A DNA stretch of 64,000 nucleotides from Salmonirosea aquatica (lineage in GTDB: Bacteria > Bacteroidota > Bacteroidia > Cytophagales > Spirosomataceae): NCBI RefSeq assembly GCF_009296315.1, contig NZ_WHLY01000002.1, forward strand, positions 4,314,501-4,378,500. Reading direction: 5' to 3'. Shown piece by piece: positions 9,201 to 58,213 of this stretch. A program made the position numbers and the translations under genes. The notes under the pieces were generated by a model that saw only the letters and a program-made list of their open reading frames with translations, was not told the origin of the DNA and ran no database searches. Within the stretch, counting starts at the first letter, position 1; every line of letters begins with the position of its first letter.

Positions 9201-11482
9201 TTACTCCTTGCTCACCCGTACCACGCCCTGCTGATTAAGCGCGTCTATTACCTTTATCAGATAAATCCCCGTCGGCAAACTACCCAGCCGGAACTCCGCC
9301 TCGTTCAACCCCTCGATCAGATTCTCTTTCCGCGACTGCCGCACCCGCCCCGATAGGTCAAGTATCTGGAAGGTACCTGGTCCCGCCGAAGGGGAAAGCA
9401 CCTCGACTGTCACGGCATCGTGTACGGGGTTGGGGTAGGCTTTGAGGGAGAGGCCGAAGGGTACCTCCTGCGCCAGTTCATAACTCAGACGGGCGGGTAC
9501 ATTGGCATTGCAGCCGCCGAGCGTGGCGCCTAAGCGCAGGTAGGTGGGTACCAGGTACTGGGCGATGCACTGCTCGCGACCGCCCAGGCATACCTTCACT
9601 CCGCCGTAGCCGCAGCGCACGTCGTTGAATGTTACAGTAATTTGCTTGGTGACCGAGCAATTGACCACGTCGGTGGCCGTGACGGTATAGGTGGTCGTTT
9701 GGGTGGGGCAGACCTGGATGCTGCCGCTCGTGGCTCCTGTGCTCCACGACAGGCTGAGGGTACCCGTGCCGCCCGAGGCGTTGGCCGTTAGGGTGGTGCA
9801 GCTGCTGCCGTAGCCGTAAGTGACCGAGGTGTTGCCGCTGGTGGTCAGGTTGATGGCCGGACGTACCGTCACGGGGATGGAAACGGTGCGCGTGCAGGCG
9901 TTGTCGTTGTCAGCCACAGAAAAGTACACCGGATAGGTACCCCCGCGGCCAGATTTGTGATCGTGAAAGTGTTCGTTTGCTGGTTGTAGGTACCGGCGGG
10001 CATCGTAAGTGCCTCGTCTTTATACCAGGTGGTTCCTACCGTGAGGCTGACGGAACCTCCCAACTGCAAGGCCGGCGAAAGGGTGTTTCCACAGCTGGCA
10101 CCGGATCGGGCAATGATGTCGTTATTGGTCACATTAGGAATTGGGATGCCGAGGGGGTAGCTAAAGCTGATGACACCCTGATTGGTAATGGGGGGCGATG
10201 GAAGACTAACTTGGATAATGCTTATATTGACCGGTCCGCCAGCAAGTGCCGCACGTATGCTTTGTCCAGCTTCATAGGTAAGCATGACCGTCGGTATCGT
10301 GATCTGGTCGGCAAAGGCTCCGGGCGCCATCGTGACCAACATGGATTCTCCACCGGCTACATTGTTGAACATAATCACACCGATGGCCCCCGCCTGTTGG
10401 GCGTAGTAGACTTTCTGGCTAAAATTGCACACTCCCCGGTCGATCAGGGCAATTTTACCCGATAACTGGGCAGCATTCACCGGGGGGCTACATCCCTGAG
10501 TCGGATTGGGTACAGTGGCATCATCTACAAAAACTCCATTCGCTGTTAAATTGACGGAATTCACATTCGCTCCAAAATTGGCTTGTGAAAAAGTGTAGGA
10601 GCCCGCCACGCCCGCGGGCGAATTGACAAGCACGTCAGGAACGCTCGGGACCTTTACTGAATTGACGGATATATATCCATTATTCGTAAAACTTCCTTTC
10701 GTATTCAGGACATTGGAAAAGGCTCGAATCAGGGCGCAGGCTTCATTGGTGAAGGTGGCGACATCAGCCAGGTTCTCGATGGCGTTGCCACCAGGGGGTA
10801 CCAGGGCCCCAATCGTGATGGTACCCGAATTGGTAAAGCTACTCGTGTTGGCGATGGCATTCGACCGGCTGCGGTCGATATGAATTTCACCCGTGGCCTT
10901 GTTGGTAAAAGTACCATAGTTCAGAATTCCGCTGACTCCGGTATTGTCCGTATCACCAATAAAAATCTTTCCCTCATTGATCACTGTACTGCTGCTGTTT
11001 AGATTCCAAATGCCGTTCCCCCAAGGCTTGTTTATCCTCAGTGTCCCGGTAGGCTTATTTTGAAACAAACCGGTGTTATACACACCATCCTGACTGGTAG
11101 TGGATATGGTTATCGTTCCATTATTAGTAAGGGTACCATCGTTGGACATGCCCGCGTCAGGCAGCATCAGATTACCCGTCGCCGAAAGGATAAGCGTAGC
11201 TCCCGATTGTACGCGCAATCCCTTTACGGAGGCTGCTGTGTTGAGAGTGGGCTGGTTGGCTGGTGCCGAGGGGACTTCGACATTGTCGTTGACGGTGGGC
11301 ACTGCATTGGTAGACCAGTTGGTGGGCGTATCCCAGTCGATGTTGGTCGCACCCGTCCAGGTGGTGGTTTGGGCGTGGAGGGCGCAGGTGCAGCCCAGCA
11401 GCAGGAAGACCAGTAACAGCTTTCTAAGCGGCCAAGCCAAGCCTAGGTGTGTGGGGTTTTGTGGAGTGTAGTGGTTTTTCAT
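9201..11482 (-). CDS. T9SS-sorted secreted protein with PA domain, frameshifted
   Basis: The start is the ATG at 11482, giving a Sec signal peptide (LLLVFLLLGCTCALHAQ). Then come repeated N-G-T-I-T beta-helix-like strands (FTNSGTITIG and similar), a protease-associated (PA) domain (GKIALIDRGVCNFSQK, AGAIGVIMFNN), an Ig-like region, and the type A sorting domain (LKAYPNPVHDAVTVEV, ending VRVSKE). It is probably exported through T9SS and anchored or released at the surface. The frame breaks at 9940-9944: a run of five Cs (plus strand) must be six to join ITNLAAG to GTYPVYFSVADND. Either an assembly error or a real inactivation. Confidence 0.8.
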
Positions 11483-53558: not shown

Positions 53559-56161
53559 TTACATGAATCGTTTGATCCGCTCGGCCAGATCGGCTGCTAC
53601 CTCACGTACCTCGGCGGCGATGCTATTGAGAAAGGCGGTGCTGTCTTTCGCTACCAAGGATTGAATTGCCACAAAATACGGCCGAAGAATCACATCATAG
53701 CCATTTTGTTGCAGTACTTCCAAAATAGCCTGCCCGTATCCCAGATTGATGGATACCGCCGCGAAGCGCCACCAATCGTCCTGGGTGTTGGGAGGGAGCT
53801 TTCCTTCGGTATAGTGTAAAGCTTGCAGCAGATGCTTTTCGGCAATCCCTAGGTTTTTATCGTACAGGGCAAATAGGGAAGCATTGAGCCAGTAACTGTC
53901 TTTTCCATCCTTAGGCTCATCCATAGCCTCGTAAAGCATTTTTGCTTTATCAAATAAATGCATTTTGTCCCGATACAGAAATAGGAGATTTATCCTTGAA
54001 CTTTCATTATTCAAATCTAATTCACTGGCTCGGAGGTAGGCTGCTTCTGCTTCCTCATATTTTCTCAAATAATCCTGATAGAGGTTTCCCAAGTTGTTCC
54101 ATAGAATGGCATCCGTTTCATCCAACTCGATAGCCCGGCGGTAGGCTGCTTCTGCCTCAGCGTAGTTCTCCAGCTGATACTGGTAGAGGGTGCCAAGACC
54201 AAACCATGGCGCGGCTTTTGTTTCATCCAGCTCGATAGCCCGGCGGTAGGCTGCTTCTGCCTCAGTGTAGTTCCCCAGCTGATACTGGTAGAGGGTGCCC
54301 AGACCATACCATGGCGCGGCATCCGTTTCATCCAGCTCGATAGCCCGGCGGTAGGCTGCTTCTGCCTCAGCGTAGTTCCCCAGGTGGTCCTGATAGAGGG
54401 TGCCCAGACCAAACCATGGCGCGGCATCTGTTTCATCCAGCTTGATAGCCCGGCGGTAGGCTGCTTCTGCCTCAGCGTAGTTCCCCAGGTGGTCCTGATA
54501 GAGGGTGCCCAGATTGTTCCATGGATTGACATCAGTTGGATTCAACTCTGTTGCTCGGCGGTAGGCTACTTCTGCTTCCTCATATTTTCTTAGTTTTTGA
54601 TTAATAGTTCCTAATAAATTCCATCCAGCTGGACTTTGAGGATTTAATCTGATTAATTCCTCGCAGATAATTATGGCTTCTGGCCAAGCTTTTGCTGAAA
54701 TAGATTCATGCATGCGCTCTATTAATGCTTTTCCTCTTTCATTTAGTACCTTCCCCGGAATATCAAAATCCTTCAAAATAGAAGCATCTGTTCTCGACAG
54801 ATCAAATAGTTCCTTATAGCTTTTTTCTCTTAACTTTCGGGCAAGCTCAAGGTCTTTAACCCCATCCGCAATAGCCAATTGCATACTGACGTGATCACGA
54901 TGGGTGACTCCCTGCTGTATCAGCCTTTCCCCCATCTGGTTGAGGTCTTCCCCGTACAGTGTGACCAGGAACTTGGTCAGGCATAGCAATTCTTTTTTCT
55001 GCCTCCGGCTGCTGCGGCGCATAAGGTACCAGATATTGAAAAATCGCTCACTGATTTCGTAGGCTTGGCCTTTCTTCTCGTAGGCATTGAGGCGGTCAAG
55101 CCAACCTACCTCGTAGAGGCGTTTAAGTTGAGGAGAAAGTTGGGGGTTTTCGAGTTGGGTAATCTGGCGCAGGTCATCCAGAGCGATGGGGTCCCAATGT
55201 AGCGCCACTGCGTCGAGAATGACCTGCATTTGCTCGGGAAGTTCTTCAAAACGGGCCTTGTACAAGGGGTCATCACATCCATGAGGCCTTCGAGGTCGGT
55301 CTGTACTTCTAGTGAAAAACCGCCCCGTATGAGCGGGTATAGCATCACGATGGTACGCGGGGTACCGCCCGTGAGCTGATACAAAGTGCGTAATCGCGCC
55401 CGGTTGCCCCGCAGAGTGATAGCAAATTCTGAGTTGCCAGTCATCTGGGCGAGATTTTCCAATACCTCCATGGTTTCCTCAAACGTTAGTTTTTTGAGGT
55501 ATTGCGTCTGGAAAGCATCGTAGAAGGGTGCTCCGTATTCCACGGTATCGGTGAGGGTGTTGGCGCTCGCCCCCACCAGAATCGGGGCATCTTTATCCAT
55601 CAAAATGGCGCGCAGTTGGTGTTGTTCTTCCCTGGCTAGTCGATCAAAAATCAGTCCCAGATTATCTACCAGTAGTACTGGCCGTCGCGCTGTCCGATGG
55701 ACCCATTGCGCAAAGTATTCGTAGAGCTGCGTAGCAGAACTATCCCGCGCGGTGGAAGCCCAGCGACTGATGTCCAGATCCAGCTGATCGAGCTGATCGG
55801 TGCTGCCTTCGCGGTCAAGGGCGTCGGCGAGGGCATCCAGACAATTGAGCCAGAACTTGGACAGGCGGTCTACGTTGTACTGCTCCTCCGGAAAGGTCAG
55901 CGGCAGAAAACTCTTTCGGTGCGGCTCCTTCCGCAGTTCTACGGCTATCCGGTGCAGGAGGGTAGACTTTCCCATGCCACGCTGCCCGATGATCAGGTAG
56001 TGCTGCGGAATAGTACCCGGCGTTTCGGACACAATACCTTGTAGAAGGTACTCGAACAACTTAATCCGGGTAATGAAAGCCCGTTCGATTTCACGGTCAC
56101 TTAACCGGCCCGGGTTGAATATGCCGATTTGAGTGGTTTTGAATCCAGTTTCCTCGCTCAT
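53559..56161 (-). CDS. STAND-like ATPase with winged-helix and TPR array, frameshifted
   Basis: The N-terminal P-loop ATPase has Walker A GQRGMGKSTLLHR (about residues 60-72) and a Walker B-like PVLLVDNLGLIF. A winged-helix-type region (LDDLRQITQLENPQLSPQL then QAYEISERFFNIWYLMRR) precedes at least eight TPRs. The frame is broken at 55266-55269, where four Gs (plus strand) should be five, joining DVMTPL to YKARFEELPEQM. Repaired, it is about 867 residues. Its ATG overlaps the upstream ATPase stop (ATGA), so the two are translationally coupled. It resembles signal-transducing STAND proteins; the signal and output are unknown. Confidence 0.75.
54030..54560 (-). repeat. Tandem 105-bp TPR-coding repeats
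   Basis: About five units of 105 bp, each encoding 35 residues of the form AYRRAIELDETDAAPW then GLGTLYQ. The central units are nearly identical at the DNA level (block TAGCCCGGCGGTAGGCTGCT recurs), implying recent amplification or gene conversion. Copy number could vary between strains. Confidence 0.85.
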
Positions 56162-57324
56162 TTTACAAATCGGTTAAACCAGAAATCACGAATCAGCGGA
56201 GAGCGGAATAGGTAGTGGGCGTTGTTCTCCGCCAGATAGCCGTCGTTCTGGAGCATGTTCAGCAAGGTTGCCAGGATGCTATCCGTCCGGTCGGCGTCGC
56301 TGTACTTCTGGTATAGTAGATTGTGCAGATTCTCCCGCTTCATCCCTTCTTTTGCCCGGCAAATATGCCGGAGTAGCAAATAGGCATCGTCTTTGTGATC
56401 GCCATATTGTTCCCGCAGCCGCTCGTCCCAGGTATTCAGATACGCCCCTTCGATTATTTCATTGTACGCTTTGTTTACTAGGTTTTGATCAATCAGAGCG
56501 TCCTCTATCTGGATTTTCCCTTTCATTTTTTCAAACAGTACTTGAATAAAGTAAGGTAGTAGGTACCCTAACTTAGCCAGCATTTGTGCTCTGATTTCTT
56601 CGTTGAACGTTACGTTTCCTCCTTTTTCTAACTCGATGATCATGGAAGTAGCTGCCTCAGAACTGAACGGTTTGAGTTCATAATAGGAAAAGTCATTGAT
56701 GGTTTTACTGAGTTGATGACCAGTGGTAAAGTTCTCGATACCCACTGAGCTGCAAAAAATCCAGCGGATTTGTGAGCCGGATACCTGCCGGAGGCTCCTG
56801 AGCCAGTGCATGAGTTCTTCTATTTGTCGTTTGTCACCATTACTGTCCAGTAATATGCCATTGAGCAGTACGGCTACCTCGTCGAAGAAAATCAGAACTT
56901 CCCGATCGTGCGGAAGAATTCGTTCTAACTCGCGGTATATATTTGATTTTTCTTTCTTCCAGTCCAGTTTGACTTCTGCCCCGCCTATACTTAAGGTTGG
57001 TTTTAAAGCACTAATTATTTCAAGCAACTTAATGCCCGACTCCTTACTTCTTTCCCAAACGGACATTTTTCGTAGTTCTCCGGTCAGCAGTTCCACAAAT
57101 TCCAGTTCCGAGTGCGCCCGTTCCAGGTTGATCTCAATGACTTCCCATCCTTCCCCTTCGGCTTTTTCGAGCATTTTCTTGGCAAAGGAGCTCTTACCTA
57201 CCCGACGGGGCGAGGGCAGCAAGATGTTATTCCCATTTTGGAGCAAATCCCATACATAGGCTATTTCCTTTTCTCTCCCAAAAAAATCGTTGCCATCTAC
57301 GGGAGCACCGGTTCTGTTCTTCAT
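56158..57324 (-). CDS. ATP-binding protein (archaeal-type ATPase)
   Basis: Starting at the ATG at 57324, it is 388 residues. The P-loop NTPase has FFGREKEIAYVWDLLQNGNNILL, Walker A SPRRVGKSSFAKK, Walker B EVLIFFDEVAVLL, an SLRQVSGSQIRWIFCSS sensor segment and a C-terminal winged-helix-like region ending in HYLFRSPLIRDFWF. It belongs with the widespread, mostly uncharacterised archaeal-ATPase-like AAA proteins. Its TGA overlaps the ATG of the next ATPase. The AT-rich palindromic region upstream is probably its promoter-operator. Confidence 0.82.
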   Translation of the reverse strand: MKNRTGAPVDGNDFFGREKEIAYVWDLLQNGNNILLPSPRRVGKSSFAKKMLEKAEGEGWEVIEINLERAHSELEFVELLTGELRKMSVWERSKESGIKLLEIISALKPTLSIGGAEVKLDWKKEKSNIYRELERILPHDREVLIFFDEVAVLLNGILLDSNGDKRQIEELMHWLRSLRQVSGSQIRWIFCSSVGIENFTTGHQLSKTINDFSYYELKPFSSEAATSMIIELEKGGNVTFNEEIRAQMLAKLGYLLPYFIQVLFEKMKGKIQIEDALIDQNLVNKAYNEIIEGAYLNTWDERLREQYGDHKDDAYLLLRHICRAKEGMKRENLHNLLYQKYSDADRTDSILATLLNMLQNDGYLAENNAHYLFRSPLIRDFWFNRFVK

Positions 57325-57355: not shown

Positions 57356-57390
57356 TATATACAAAAATGCATATATACAAATTTGTATAT
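57356..57390 (-). promoter_or_regulatory. AT-rich palindrome upstream of the ATPase pair
   Basis: ATATACAAATTTGTATAT (57373-57390) is a perfect 18-bp palindrome. A partial copy, TATATACAAA, lies 16 bp closer to the gene (57356-57365) and repeats 57372-57381. It lies 32 bp before the ATG at 57324, so it could be a repressor site; autoregulation is a guess. Confidence 0.5.
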
Positions 57391-57445: not shown

Positions 57446-58213
57446 TTACCACTCTTTCACCTCCGCCTCGCGCAGCCACGCCAGCGGATTCTCGGGTTGG
57501 GGTAGGTAGCTGCTATCCAGCCGCAGGAACATCATGTGTACGTGGGTAGGGGAGCGTCCCTTGTAGGCGTTGAGGCCGGTGCGACCTATCTCGCCGAGTT
57601 TCTGGCCGGACTGTACCCATTGGCCGGGCTGCACCACCACGCGGCTGTTGTGGGCATAGTAGAAAAGTCCGTTGAGGCAGGGATCGTATACCCAAACGAA
57701 ATTACCGCCGCGTAATTCACTTTCGGGTTGCCAGGTAGTGTCGGTAGCCAGCACGACGCCCTGACTGAATGAAAGCAGATCGACGGGAAGGCACATGTGG
57801 TCGTCGAGATTGTCCTGATTGCCATCGCGGATGAACAAATCGTGGGCGGGGTGGCTCCCGCGCGCATCGGCATCAAACAGGTCGAATCCTTTGGCGCGGA
57901 AACCGCGCCCATTGCCCCCGATGGAATAGCGGGGCAGGTACCCCCGGAGTGGATACACGAACCGATTGGCCGCGTCGTCGCGGCAGGAGTCCAGCAGGGG
58001 CAGCACGCTTTGGATGTTACGCATGGTAGCCTGGAAAGCCCGTGCCGCCGAGTCGGGGCTGACGTTGCATTCCCGGATGTCGATCTGGATTTGCTGAAAC
58101 TGGTGCACATAGTTCAGCATTTGTTCCGAAGGCGTTTCTACCCGGCTCCATCCCATCAAAGCCATGATCACTGAGAGCGCCATCAGGCTATTGCCTACGT
58201 TTCTCCAAATCAT
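57446..58213 (-). CDS. M23-family metallopeptidase
   Basis: The 255-residue protein starts with a hydrophobic signal (SLMALSVIMALMGW). The LytM/M23 Zn ligands are present: HPAHDLFI (HxxxD) and THVHMM (HxH), with GGNFVWVYDPCLNGLFYYAHNSRVVV and GQWVQSGQKLGEIGRTG between. M23 enzymes cleave peptidoglycan cross-links or act as activators. The enzyme should be periplasmic. It faces the ATPase operon and is probably unrelated to it. Confidence 0.88.
   Translation of the reverse strand: MIWRNVGNSLMALSVIMALMGWSRVETPSEQMLNYVHQFQQIQIDIRECNVSPDSAARAFQATMRNIQSVLPLLDSCRDDAANRFVYPLRGYLPRYSIGGNGRGFRAKGFDLFDADARGSHPAHDLFIRDGNQDNLDDHMCLPVDLLSFSQGVVLATDTTWQPESELRGGNFVWVYDPCLNGLFYYAHNSRVVVQPGQWVQSGQKLGEIGRTGLNAYKGRSPTHVHMMFLRLDSSYLPQPENPLAWLREAEVKEW

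What the first reader, a model, noticed from the sequence alone, without database searches (positions are those of the whole stretch)
53559..57324. Translationally coupled pair of P-loop ATPases, the second with STAND-like layout
Two ATPases of different families overlap by ATGA under an AT-rich palindromic control region. The second has ATPase, winged helix and a TPR array in the order of STAND signalling proteins. Such pairs include anti-phage and stress systems, but no effector domain is visible here, so the output is open.
Basis: partly seen in the sequence, partly recalled or inferred. Interest (0 to 1): 0.6.

Follow-up and report, generated by a model that had tools for sequence, protein, structure and literature searches.

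The report
Paired NLR-like ATPases with own operator
Two neighbouring bacterial genes form a conserved pair of switch-like ATPases, one carrying a fast-changing recognition arm like that of immune receptors; relatives in several phyla carry the same kind of DNA control sites in front of the pair, although the copy in this genome looks broken.

Summary
Two minus-strand genes overlap by ATGA below an AT-rich palindrome, but gene B is not one open frame here: ATPase half and winged-helix/TPR half lie in different frames, while relatives have one frame. Both proteins are the same kind of STAND/MNS ATPase (models closest to archaeal 2qen/2fna, then ORC/Cdc6 and NLRs), not different families. The pair is real: A is directly upstream of B in 72 of 80 relatives, A and B distances agree (Mantel r 0.90), and no third gene was found to recur. 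Two facts point to mechanism. B's TPR region is hypervariable next to a conserved switch (511 of 511 pairs; e.g. NOD 91%, TPR 37%, C-terminal cap 84%). And the pair carries its own operator: TGACAA-N8-TTGTCA in 67 of 70 relatives, usually in tandem at 27-bp steps, against 5 of 481 control upstreams; the window has a variant unique in its genome. A keeps Walker B DE (69/69); B has DN (58/59). Best reading: an autoregulated, NLR-like recognition module, B sensing and A executing. Immunity, DNA binding and output are inferred: no effector or defence-island enrichment was seen, and a small regulon is neither shown nor excluded.

The parts
57358..57389 (.). Double palindromic operator (TATACA-N4-TGTATA twice, 18-bp step), 33 bp before the start codon of gene A
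   Evidence: Pattern matched with 0 mismatches on the minus strand, mean 0.00 in 100 shuffles; the only place in the 7.07-Mb genome with up to 3 mismatches, reversed control 0; the same element seen by eye upstream of A in 9 of 9 printed members of the window subfamily (a tenth, L180, lacks its 5' end)
56158..57324 (-). Gene A: 388-aa ATPase + winged helix, no sensor repeats, no effector domain found
57187..57213 (-). Walker A of A (SPRRVGKSS)
   Evidence: P, R, R, G, K in 69 of 69 aligned A proteins
56878..56895 (-). Walker B of A ending in DE
   Evidence: D and E in 69 of 69 aligned A proteins
56158..56161 (-). ATGA overlap of A stop and B start
   Evidence: A and B overlap in 48 of 70 relatives
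55271..56161 (-). Gene B, first half: ATPase and lid, up to the frame break
55964..55987 (-). Walker A of B (GQRGMGKS)
   Evidence: read; lysine in 59 of 59 relatives
55661..55666 (-). Walker B of B, DN in place of DE
   Evidence: read; N in 58 of 59 relatives, E in none
53559..55265 (-). Gene B, second half, in another frame: winged-helix region, TPR array, C-terminal cap
54108..54575 (-). TPR array of near-identical 35-aa units (105-bp tandem repeat)
53562..53771 (-). C-terminal cap (last 70 aa)
   Evidence: more conserved than the TPR part in 427 of 511 relative pairs

Best explanation
A and B form a self-contained recognition switch of the STAND/NLR type. B is the sensor-regulator: an ORC/NLR-like nucleotide switch (NOD = ATPase, lid, winged helix) followed by a rapidly diversifying TPR/Sel1 array that meets a ligand, and a C-terminal cap. 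A is a bare NOD with an intact ATPase site that assembles with B and acts as executor. At rest B (or A with B) sits on the tandem palindromes in front of the operon and keeps it low; ligand on the TPR arm opens the NOD, the A-B assembly forms and the operon is derepressed. The ligand is most likely a phage or mobile-element product. Shown here: the conserved pair, its shared ancestry, the modelled fold, the asymmetric Walker B, the hypervariable sensor and the conserved operator sequence. Inferred: that A/B bind the operator, that they form a hetero-oligomer, the nature of the ligand, and the output. The copy in the window has a broken B frame and may be inactive.
For: Pairing: A-like gene directly upstream of B at 18 of 18 B places (the window included) in 341 genomes of the order; 72 of 80 in the wider set (in L067 and L069 only the tail of A is on the contig), with L082 cut in A and L093 at a contig edge; 23 of 23 phylum genomes with A at E up to 1e-40 also have B. 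Mantel r 0.899 between A and B distances over 70 pairs, 0 of 2000 permutations as high, largest 0.28. Fold: A Z 26.3 (327 aligned, rmsd 3.6) and B core of relative L113 Z 19.1 (322, 4.6) to 2qen; 2fna, ORC2 and NLR/apoptosome proteins follow. Sensor: TPR part less alike than NOD in 511 of 511 B pairs (means 63/34/50% for NOD/TPR/cap; 82/47/70% in the 56 pairs with NOD at least 75%); L175-L176 NOD 92, TPR 62, cap 93 with 489 vs 279 aa; L035-L178 NOD 96 with 338 vs 114 aa; L064-L125 92-100% over 7 kb except 75-88% in the TPR part. Control TPR orthologues of two genomes 67-79% (4 pairs found among 30 loci) against 32% for B of the same genomes. Operator: at least 10 of 12 positions in 67 of 70 (44 perfect), two copies 26-28 bp apart in 58 of 70, against 5 and 1 of 481 control upstreams. 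B-only loci L063, L064, L125 (nearly identical to L064), L090, L132 keep it, 5 of 6.
Against: No effector domain among the families shown and no recurring third gene found. Only scattered defence-model matches among 134 neighbours, no background set scanned, so no defence island is shown. dN/dS in the TPR part stays below 1 (0.03-0.49 in the 14 of 17 pairs where it is defined); dS there is raised in several pairs, which points to segment exchange or repeat turnover, not to point-by-point selection. The cap is not always conserved: it is below the TPR part in 84 of 511 pairs, among them the Chitinophaga pairs. Only 3 of 90 B proteins meet a criterion modelled on that for fungal NLRs (fungal TPR NLRs 21.2%, PMC4986451 passage). 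12 of 35 phylum genomes with B have no A at 1e-40. No relative in phages or viral contigs. Window B is frame-broken.
Confidence: 0.48

Rival explanations
1. An autoregulated regulator of the MalT/IniR kind: B senses a small molecule or a host protein and the pair controls transcription in response to stress or nutrients; the TPR part varies because it is loosely constrained.
For: Operator overlapping promoter-like sequence (28 of 70 against 7 of 503); winged helices; mostly housekeeping-type neighbours (families shown). Single operator-like sites (up to 1 mismatch) elsewhere are not rare: 88 in 14 genomes, of which 18 listed ones lie at the pair, against 37 for the reversed pattern and 29 with a 7-base spacer, so a small regulon is possible. 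MalT is a STAND regulator (PMC4381067, search listing) and IniR a signal transduction ATPase (PMC5760070, listing).
Against: 27-28-bp arrays appear in the listed rows only at the pair (listing cut before the rest of G314, G236, G287 and G504). Of 11 sites away from the pair that were fetched, 9 lie inside ORFs. Patchy presence (17 of 341 genomes). Segmental divergence of the TPR part against 92-100% identical surroundings.
Confidence: 0.27
2. An addiction-like pair: A is the harmful partner, B the restraining regulator, kept by selfish advantage more than by defence.
For: Palindromic operator, overlapping genes, A not seen without B (23 of 23; 16 of 16) while B occurs without A (6 of 80); A frames found broken more often (L045, L091, L106, L178, L179, perhaps L039) than B (window, L180).
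Against: No toxin family or fold was seen for A; a hypervariable repeat arm is not a usual part of such pairs (recalled); orphan B is kept. The A model was built from A genes that sit beside B, which may hide lone A genes.
Confidence: 0.12
3. ORC/Cdc6- or TnsC-like DNA machine: the pair loads on the tandem repeats as on iterons, for maintenance of a mobile element.
For: ORC/Cdc6 and TnsC folds among the nearest structures; 27-bp iteron-like arrays; recombinase- or integrase-like genes beside L063, L064 and L125 (sequences, my reading).
Against: No replication or transposition gene family recurs beside the pair; it does not explain the variable TPR arm.
Confidence: 0.08

Closest known systems
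MNS-clade STAND ATPases (SSO1545 = 2fna, PAB2304 = 2qen)
   Same: Whole fold of A and of the B core; best structural matches; ATPase_2 Pfam match
   Different: Here two diverged paralogues in an operon, one with a variable TPR arm, under a conserved operator; nothing like this is known to me for those proteins (recall)
NLR / AP-ATPase receptors (NRC4, RPP1, CED-4, Dark; fungal TPR NLRs)
   Same: NOD fold, C-terminal repeat sensor, rapid change and length variation of the repeats (PMC4986451 abstract and passages)
   Different: No effector domain found on either protein; dN/dS below 1; few arrays with high internal identity
MalT (STAND transcription regulator)
   Same: ATPase, winged helix and helical-repeat sensor order (recalled for MalT); a role at promoters is plausible
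   Different: No separate DNA-binding output domain was found
Archaeal Cdc6/Orc1 pair
   Same: Two paralogous ATPase-winged-helix proteins and repeated sites
   Different: No replication context looked for or seen; TPR arm on one partner
iSTAND and other STAND conflict systems (PMC7159879, PMC8195603; passages seen)
   Same: STAND module, Walker B change in B, weak iSTAND match in 7 of 59 B
   Different: No vWA-MoxR pair recurs beside it; B keeps Walker A
PADLOC mad8 / NCBIfam DS41_1
   Same: Weak P-loop matches (mad8 for A and B; DS41_1 in 4 of 69 A and 4 of 59 B)
   Different: Low scores; no set of MADS genes beside the pair

Membership tests
STAND superfamily | NOD of P-loop ATPase, lid and winged helix | tested here: met
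   Models and matches over the whole NOD for window A and for the B core of L113
STAND superfamily | C-terminal superstructure-forming sensor repeats | tested here: met
   Window B; the commonest TPR family in 20 and Sel1 in 17 of 59 B; none in A
STAND superfamily | Fused or neighbouring effector | tested here: inconclusive
   None in the window proteins or among the first 25 of 67 families for 59 B; no recurring third gene in 80 loci
MNS clade | Nearest to SSO1545/PAB2304 structures | tested here: met
   Top two rows for both models; clade name from a passage of PMC8195603 and recall
NLR-like immune receptor | Diversified ligand-binding repeats | tested here: met
   Diversity shown; that they bind a ligand is not tested
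NLR-like immune receptor | Triggered by an invader and protective | not testable with these tools
   needs phage challenge
NLR-like immune receptor | Positive selection (dN/dS above 1) on the repeats | tested here: not met
   0.03-0.49 in 14 of 17 pairs where defined; averaged over the whole TPR part, so single sites are not tested
MalT-like regulator | Separate DNA-binding output domain | tested here: inconclusive
   None in the window proteins or among the listed families of 59 B, whose HTH matches fall on the winged helix in L113
iSTAND ternary system | vWA-MoxR pair beside it | tested here: not met
   No neighbour family common to the loci
MADS defence system | Full mad gene set | tested here: not met
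   Only weak mad8 P-loop matches; mad2 and mad3 matches in 5 and 2 of 134 neighbours
ORC/Cdc6 initiators | Replication origin context | not tested
   No origin or replication search was made

The most novel reading that the evidence does not exclude
A widespread bacterial recognition system made of two paralogous NOD switches: a sensor NOD with an exchangeable TPR cassette and a bare executor NOD, which together read a cognate tandem operator that diverges with the proteins. Its response would be self-derepression and assembly on DNA in place of a fused toxin, a bacterial parallel to sensor-helper NLR pairs.
Probability: 0.3. Interest if true: 0.82.

Novelty: new variant of a known kind. Interest (0 to 1): 0.62.

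Why it matters
If right, this is an NLR-like receptor architecture without an attached effector, split into a sensor and a partner, with a built-in promoter switch found in several phyla. It would ask how a receptor without a toxin domain acts, and it offers a natural set of swapped recognition arms on nearly constant switches, which makes ligand-specificity experiments direct. The operator gives a ready reporter for activation.

Tried and rejected
Different families: rejected by the A-B profile comparison and shared structural neighbours. Third partner: clustering of 730 neighbour ORFs in 80 loci gave no family common to the system; the largest group (7 loci) looks like ABC-type ATPases, several others are shared flanks of related genomes. 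Defence island: 134 neighbours, chosen from 218 listed (which had already left out four loci and ORFs over 1100 aa) to stay under the 50,000-residue limit, gave single PADLOC matches such as PDC-S01, a 2TM effector, an RT, and mad2/mad3 in 5 and 2 (first 25 of 46 families shown); no background set was scanned and no enrichment is claimed. Distant plasmid relatives (26-29% identical in the ATPase) do lie near annotated Pycsar, cyclase and methylase genes and a CARF-model match. Point-wise positive selection: not found. High internal repeat identity: 3 of 90 B against 0 of 297 control ORFs of at least 300 aa; for the window only the second half of B was used. DNA-level tandem arrays: 23 of 92 B, no control set. 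Phage or viral carriage: none. Transfer between phyla: the B tree groups mostly by phylum (59 rows, quick tree), so it is not claimed. First operator pattern had the wrong spacer: 44 of 79 upstreams at 10 or more of 14, against 59 of 499 controls; the corrected one is (69 of 78 against 15 of 499 at 10 of 12). Operator misses: 3 of 70; L095 and L100 begin at a contig edge, L131 has a TGCAA-type array, as has L040 from the order set; L050 and L051 carry other palindromes. The 70 leave out L067 and L069, whose A is a 69-aa tail. Regulon: in my draft I had called single sites elsewhere no more frequent than the control; on recount they exceed the reversed control in 9 of 14 genomes, and with a 7-base spacer gives 29 against 88, so I raised the regulator rival (0.25 to 0.27) and lowered the best reading (0.50 to 0.48). 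Programmed frameshift in B: the site did not look like a usual -1 slippery site by eye; not tested. Region comparison: of 92 available B genes, 9 cut by contig ends were left out and 5 of the remaining 83 without the expected motif; L177-L179 failed for the same reason. Papers: listings, abstracts and passages only; none of the papers listed was seen to describe this pair; the library holds open-access papers only.
Full report
What is there. Two minus-strand genes lie between a long gene that reads like ileS (recalled, not searched) and an M23 peptidase gene. Gene A runs from the ATG at 57324 to its stop at 56158 (388 aa). Gene B starts at 56161, so the two overlap by ATGA. B is open for the ATPase half only; the winged-helix and TPR half follows in another frame (53559-55265). 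Each query gives one match in the 7.07-Mb genome. Of nine nearer relatives found in the family, eight have B open well past this point (599-972 aa; G457 at 76% and G374 at 62% identity among them); G472, on a 3.3-kb contig, is the exception. So the copy in the window is either decayed or carries a sequencing error. Broken frames recur: A in L045, L091, L106, L178, L179, perhaps L039, and B in L180, several of them in drafts.

What the proteins are. A matches ATPase_2 and B's first half AAA_16 and ATPase_2. Of 59 relatives of B, 55 match nSTAND_NTPase5 at E up to 0.001 (in the first member 24.9 bits, below Pfam's cut-off of 34), 25 ORC-CDC6-like and 7 iSTAND. AlphaFold2 models are good: window A pLDDT 91.8, and the B core, taken from a 533-aa relative in Clostridium tagluense (L113), 88.1. 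VIA-align, which re-aligns Foldseek's top 1000, puts both nearest to the archaeal ATPases 2qen and 2fna (A: Z 26.3, 327 aligned, rmsd 3.6, and Z 25.4, 333, 3.9; B: Z 19.1, 322, 4.6, and Z 17.7, 316, 4.3), followed by ORC2 and by NLR and apoptosome proteins. A and B are distant paralogues. A keeps the Walker A lysine and Walker B DE in 69 of 69; B keeps the Walker A lysine in 59 of 59 but has DN in 58 of 59 and E in none, with two E after strand 2, each in 58 of 59. That B is a weaker ATPase is an inference: the EE pair could stand in for the missing glutamate.

The pair is conserved. In 341 genomes of the order, B was found in 17 and A in 16; at all 18 B places an A-like gene lies just upstream, the one in G059 (L050) being too diverged for the search but alignable. 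In 80 named loci (the best 80 of 406 relatives), A is just upstream of B in 72 (only its tail in L067 and L069); L082 keeps an A fragment at a contig edge, L093 is cut, and six have no A within reach (L063, L064, L125, L090, L107, L132). Of 70 loci with A of at least 285 aa, 48 overlap, 18 have gaps up to 100 bp and 4 larger (two of these four have A split in two frames). In 395 genomes of the phylum, 23 have A and all 23 have B; 35 have B, so 12 have B without A at this cut-off (E up to 1e-40), most of them in one family; a diverged A was not looked for there. Distances in A and B agree. Outside close relatives the flanking genes differ, and no third family was found to recur.

The recognition arm varies. 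Cutting 78 B proteins into NOD, TPR part and last 70 aa, the TPR part is less conserved than the NOD in 511 of 511 pairs with NOD identity of 55-99% (repeated); the last 70 aa are more conserved than the TPR part in 427 of 511, and in 44 of the 56 pairs with NOD of at least 75%. Close pairs: L040-L131 91/37/84, L044-L046 85/32/94, L098-L108 92/29/64, with A at 88, 86 and 78%. In the Chitinophaga pairs listed the last 70 aa vary too (20-48%). Lengths jump between relatives. L064 and L125 (two Pedobacter elements beside an integrase-like gene) are 92-100% identical over 7 kb, 99-100% to the right of the gene, but drop to 75-88% within the TPR part, where dS is 0.51 against 0.05 in the NOD. That is the mark of a replaced or recombined segment more than of point-wise selection; dN/dS is below 1 wherever it is defined. 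Among 30 TPR loci fetched from the genomes of L044 and L046, four orthologue pairs were found, 67-79% identical (BLAST), against 32% for the B TPR part. DNA-level tandem arrays occur in 23 of 92 B genes; the window array has near-identical 105-bp units.

The pair carries its operator. Upstream of A, 67 of 70 loci hold TGACAA-N8-TTGTCA with at least 10 of 12 positions (44 perfect) and 58 of 70 hold two copies 26-28 bp apart; 481 control upstreams of other genes in the same loci give 5 and 1. Of the three misses two begin at a contig edge and one (L131) has a TGCAA-type array. Positive loci: Bacteroidota 46 of 47, Thermodesulfobacteriota 5 of 5, Cloacimonadota 3 of 5, Fidelibacterota 2 of 2, one each in Fusobacteriota, Calditrichota, Actinomycetota and Bacillota, 7 of 7 unplaced (labels follow record titles, many are bins). 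In 28 of 70 there is a TTTG-N18-20-TAnnYTTG pattern (7 of 503 controls), which I recall as the Bacteroidetes promoter. The window subfamily (9 of 9 printed) has another form, TATACA-N4-TGTATA in tandem, beside different neighbours, and in the own genome it is unique. L050 and L051 have yet other palindromes (seen). That operator forms change with the protein subfamily suggests that A or B is the binder. Orphan B genes keep the operator in 5 of 6 cases, two of these nearly identical, which favours B.

Targets elsewhere. In 14 genomes, sites with up to one mismatch number 88 in all (18 of the listed ones at the pair), against 37 for the reversed pattern and 29 for the same half-sites with a 7-base spacer. 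The excess is real in 9 of 14 genomes by the reversed control, so a small set of further targets cannot be excluded. Against it, 27-28-bp arrays in the listed rows lie only at the pair (the list was cut), and 9 of 11 fetched sites away from the pair fall inside ORFs. In Clostridium tagluense two further single sites lie just behind the pair, not followed up.

How it most likely works. B senses with its TPR arm and represses the operon from the operator; a ligand opens the switch, A joins, and the operon is derepressed. Gene order, modelled fold and operator sequence are shown; DNA binding, assembly, ligand and output are inferred. The immune reading rests on the segmental variation of the arm, patchy presence, occasional mobile surroundings and recurrent decay. 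Against it stand mostly housekeeping-type neighbours, no effector found and no functional data. Fungal NLRs offer the closest published pattern of variable TPR sensors that I saw (PMC4986451, abstract and passages). Overall: a new variant of STAND/NLR-like systems, more interesting than the first report suggested because of the operator and the exchangeable arm.

Noticed in passing
L113 10596 and 11844: Two further single operator-like sites lie directly behind the pair in Clostridium tagluense, near small membrane-like genes; possibly a local target.
   Followed up: partly
L107 6568-6612: In a Calditrichia genome A is missing and the operator lies before an intervening 225-aa gene whose start looks like a CRP/FNR regulator (recalled from sequence, not searched).
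   Followed up: partly
L064 and L125, about 10351-11100: Two nearly identical Pedobacter elements differ most inside the TPR part of B; a good case for mapping a recombined segment.
   Followed up: yes
L133 7271-16692: On a Moraxella osloensis plasmid the pair, with A shortened behind an IS5 transposase, is followed by dUTPase, PRTase-like, a further ATPase-like, CARF-like and N6-methylase genes; a possible larger conflict operon.
   Followed up: partly
L135 1043-5413: A distant B relative on a Sphingobium plasmid sits beside an annotated Pycsar effector and cyclase.
   Followed up: no
L035, L177, L178, L179: In four relatives of the window subfamily the pair lies beside a gene that reads like a fumarase (recalled, not searched), a shared place not seen in the window.
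   Followed up: no
window 57446-58213: M23 peptidase gene directly upstream of the operator region, on the same strand.
   Followed up: no
G256, G295, G156, G236, G314: Single operator-like sites are clearly more frequent than the reversed pattern in these genomes; unexplained.
   Followed up: partly
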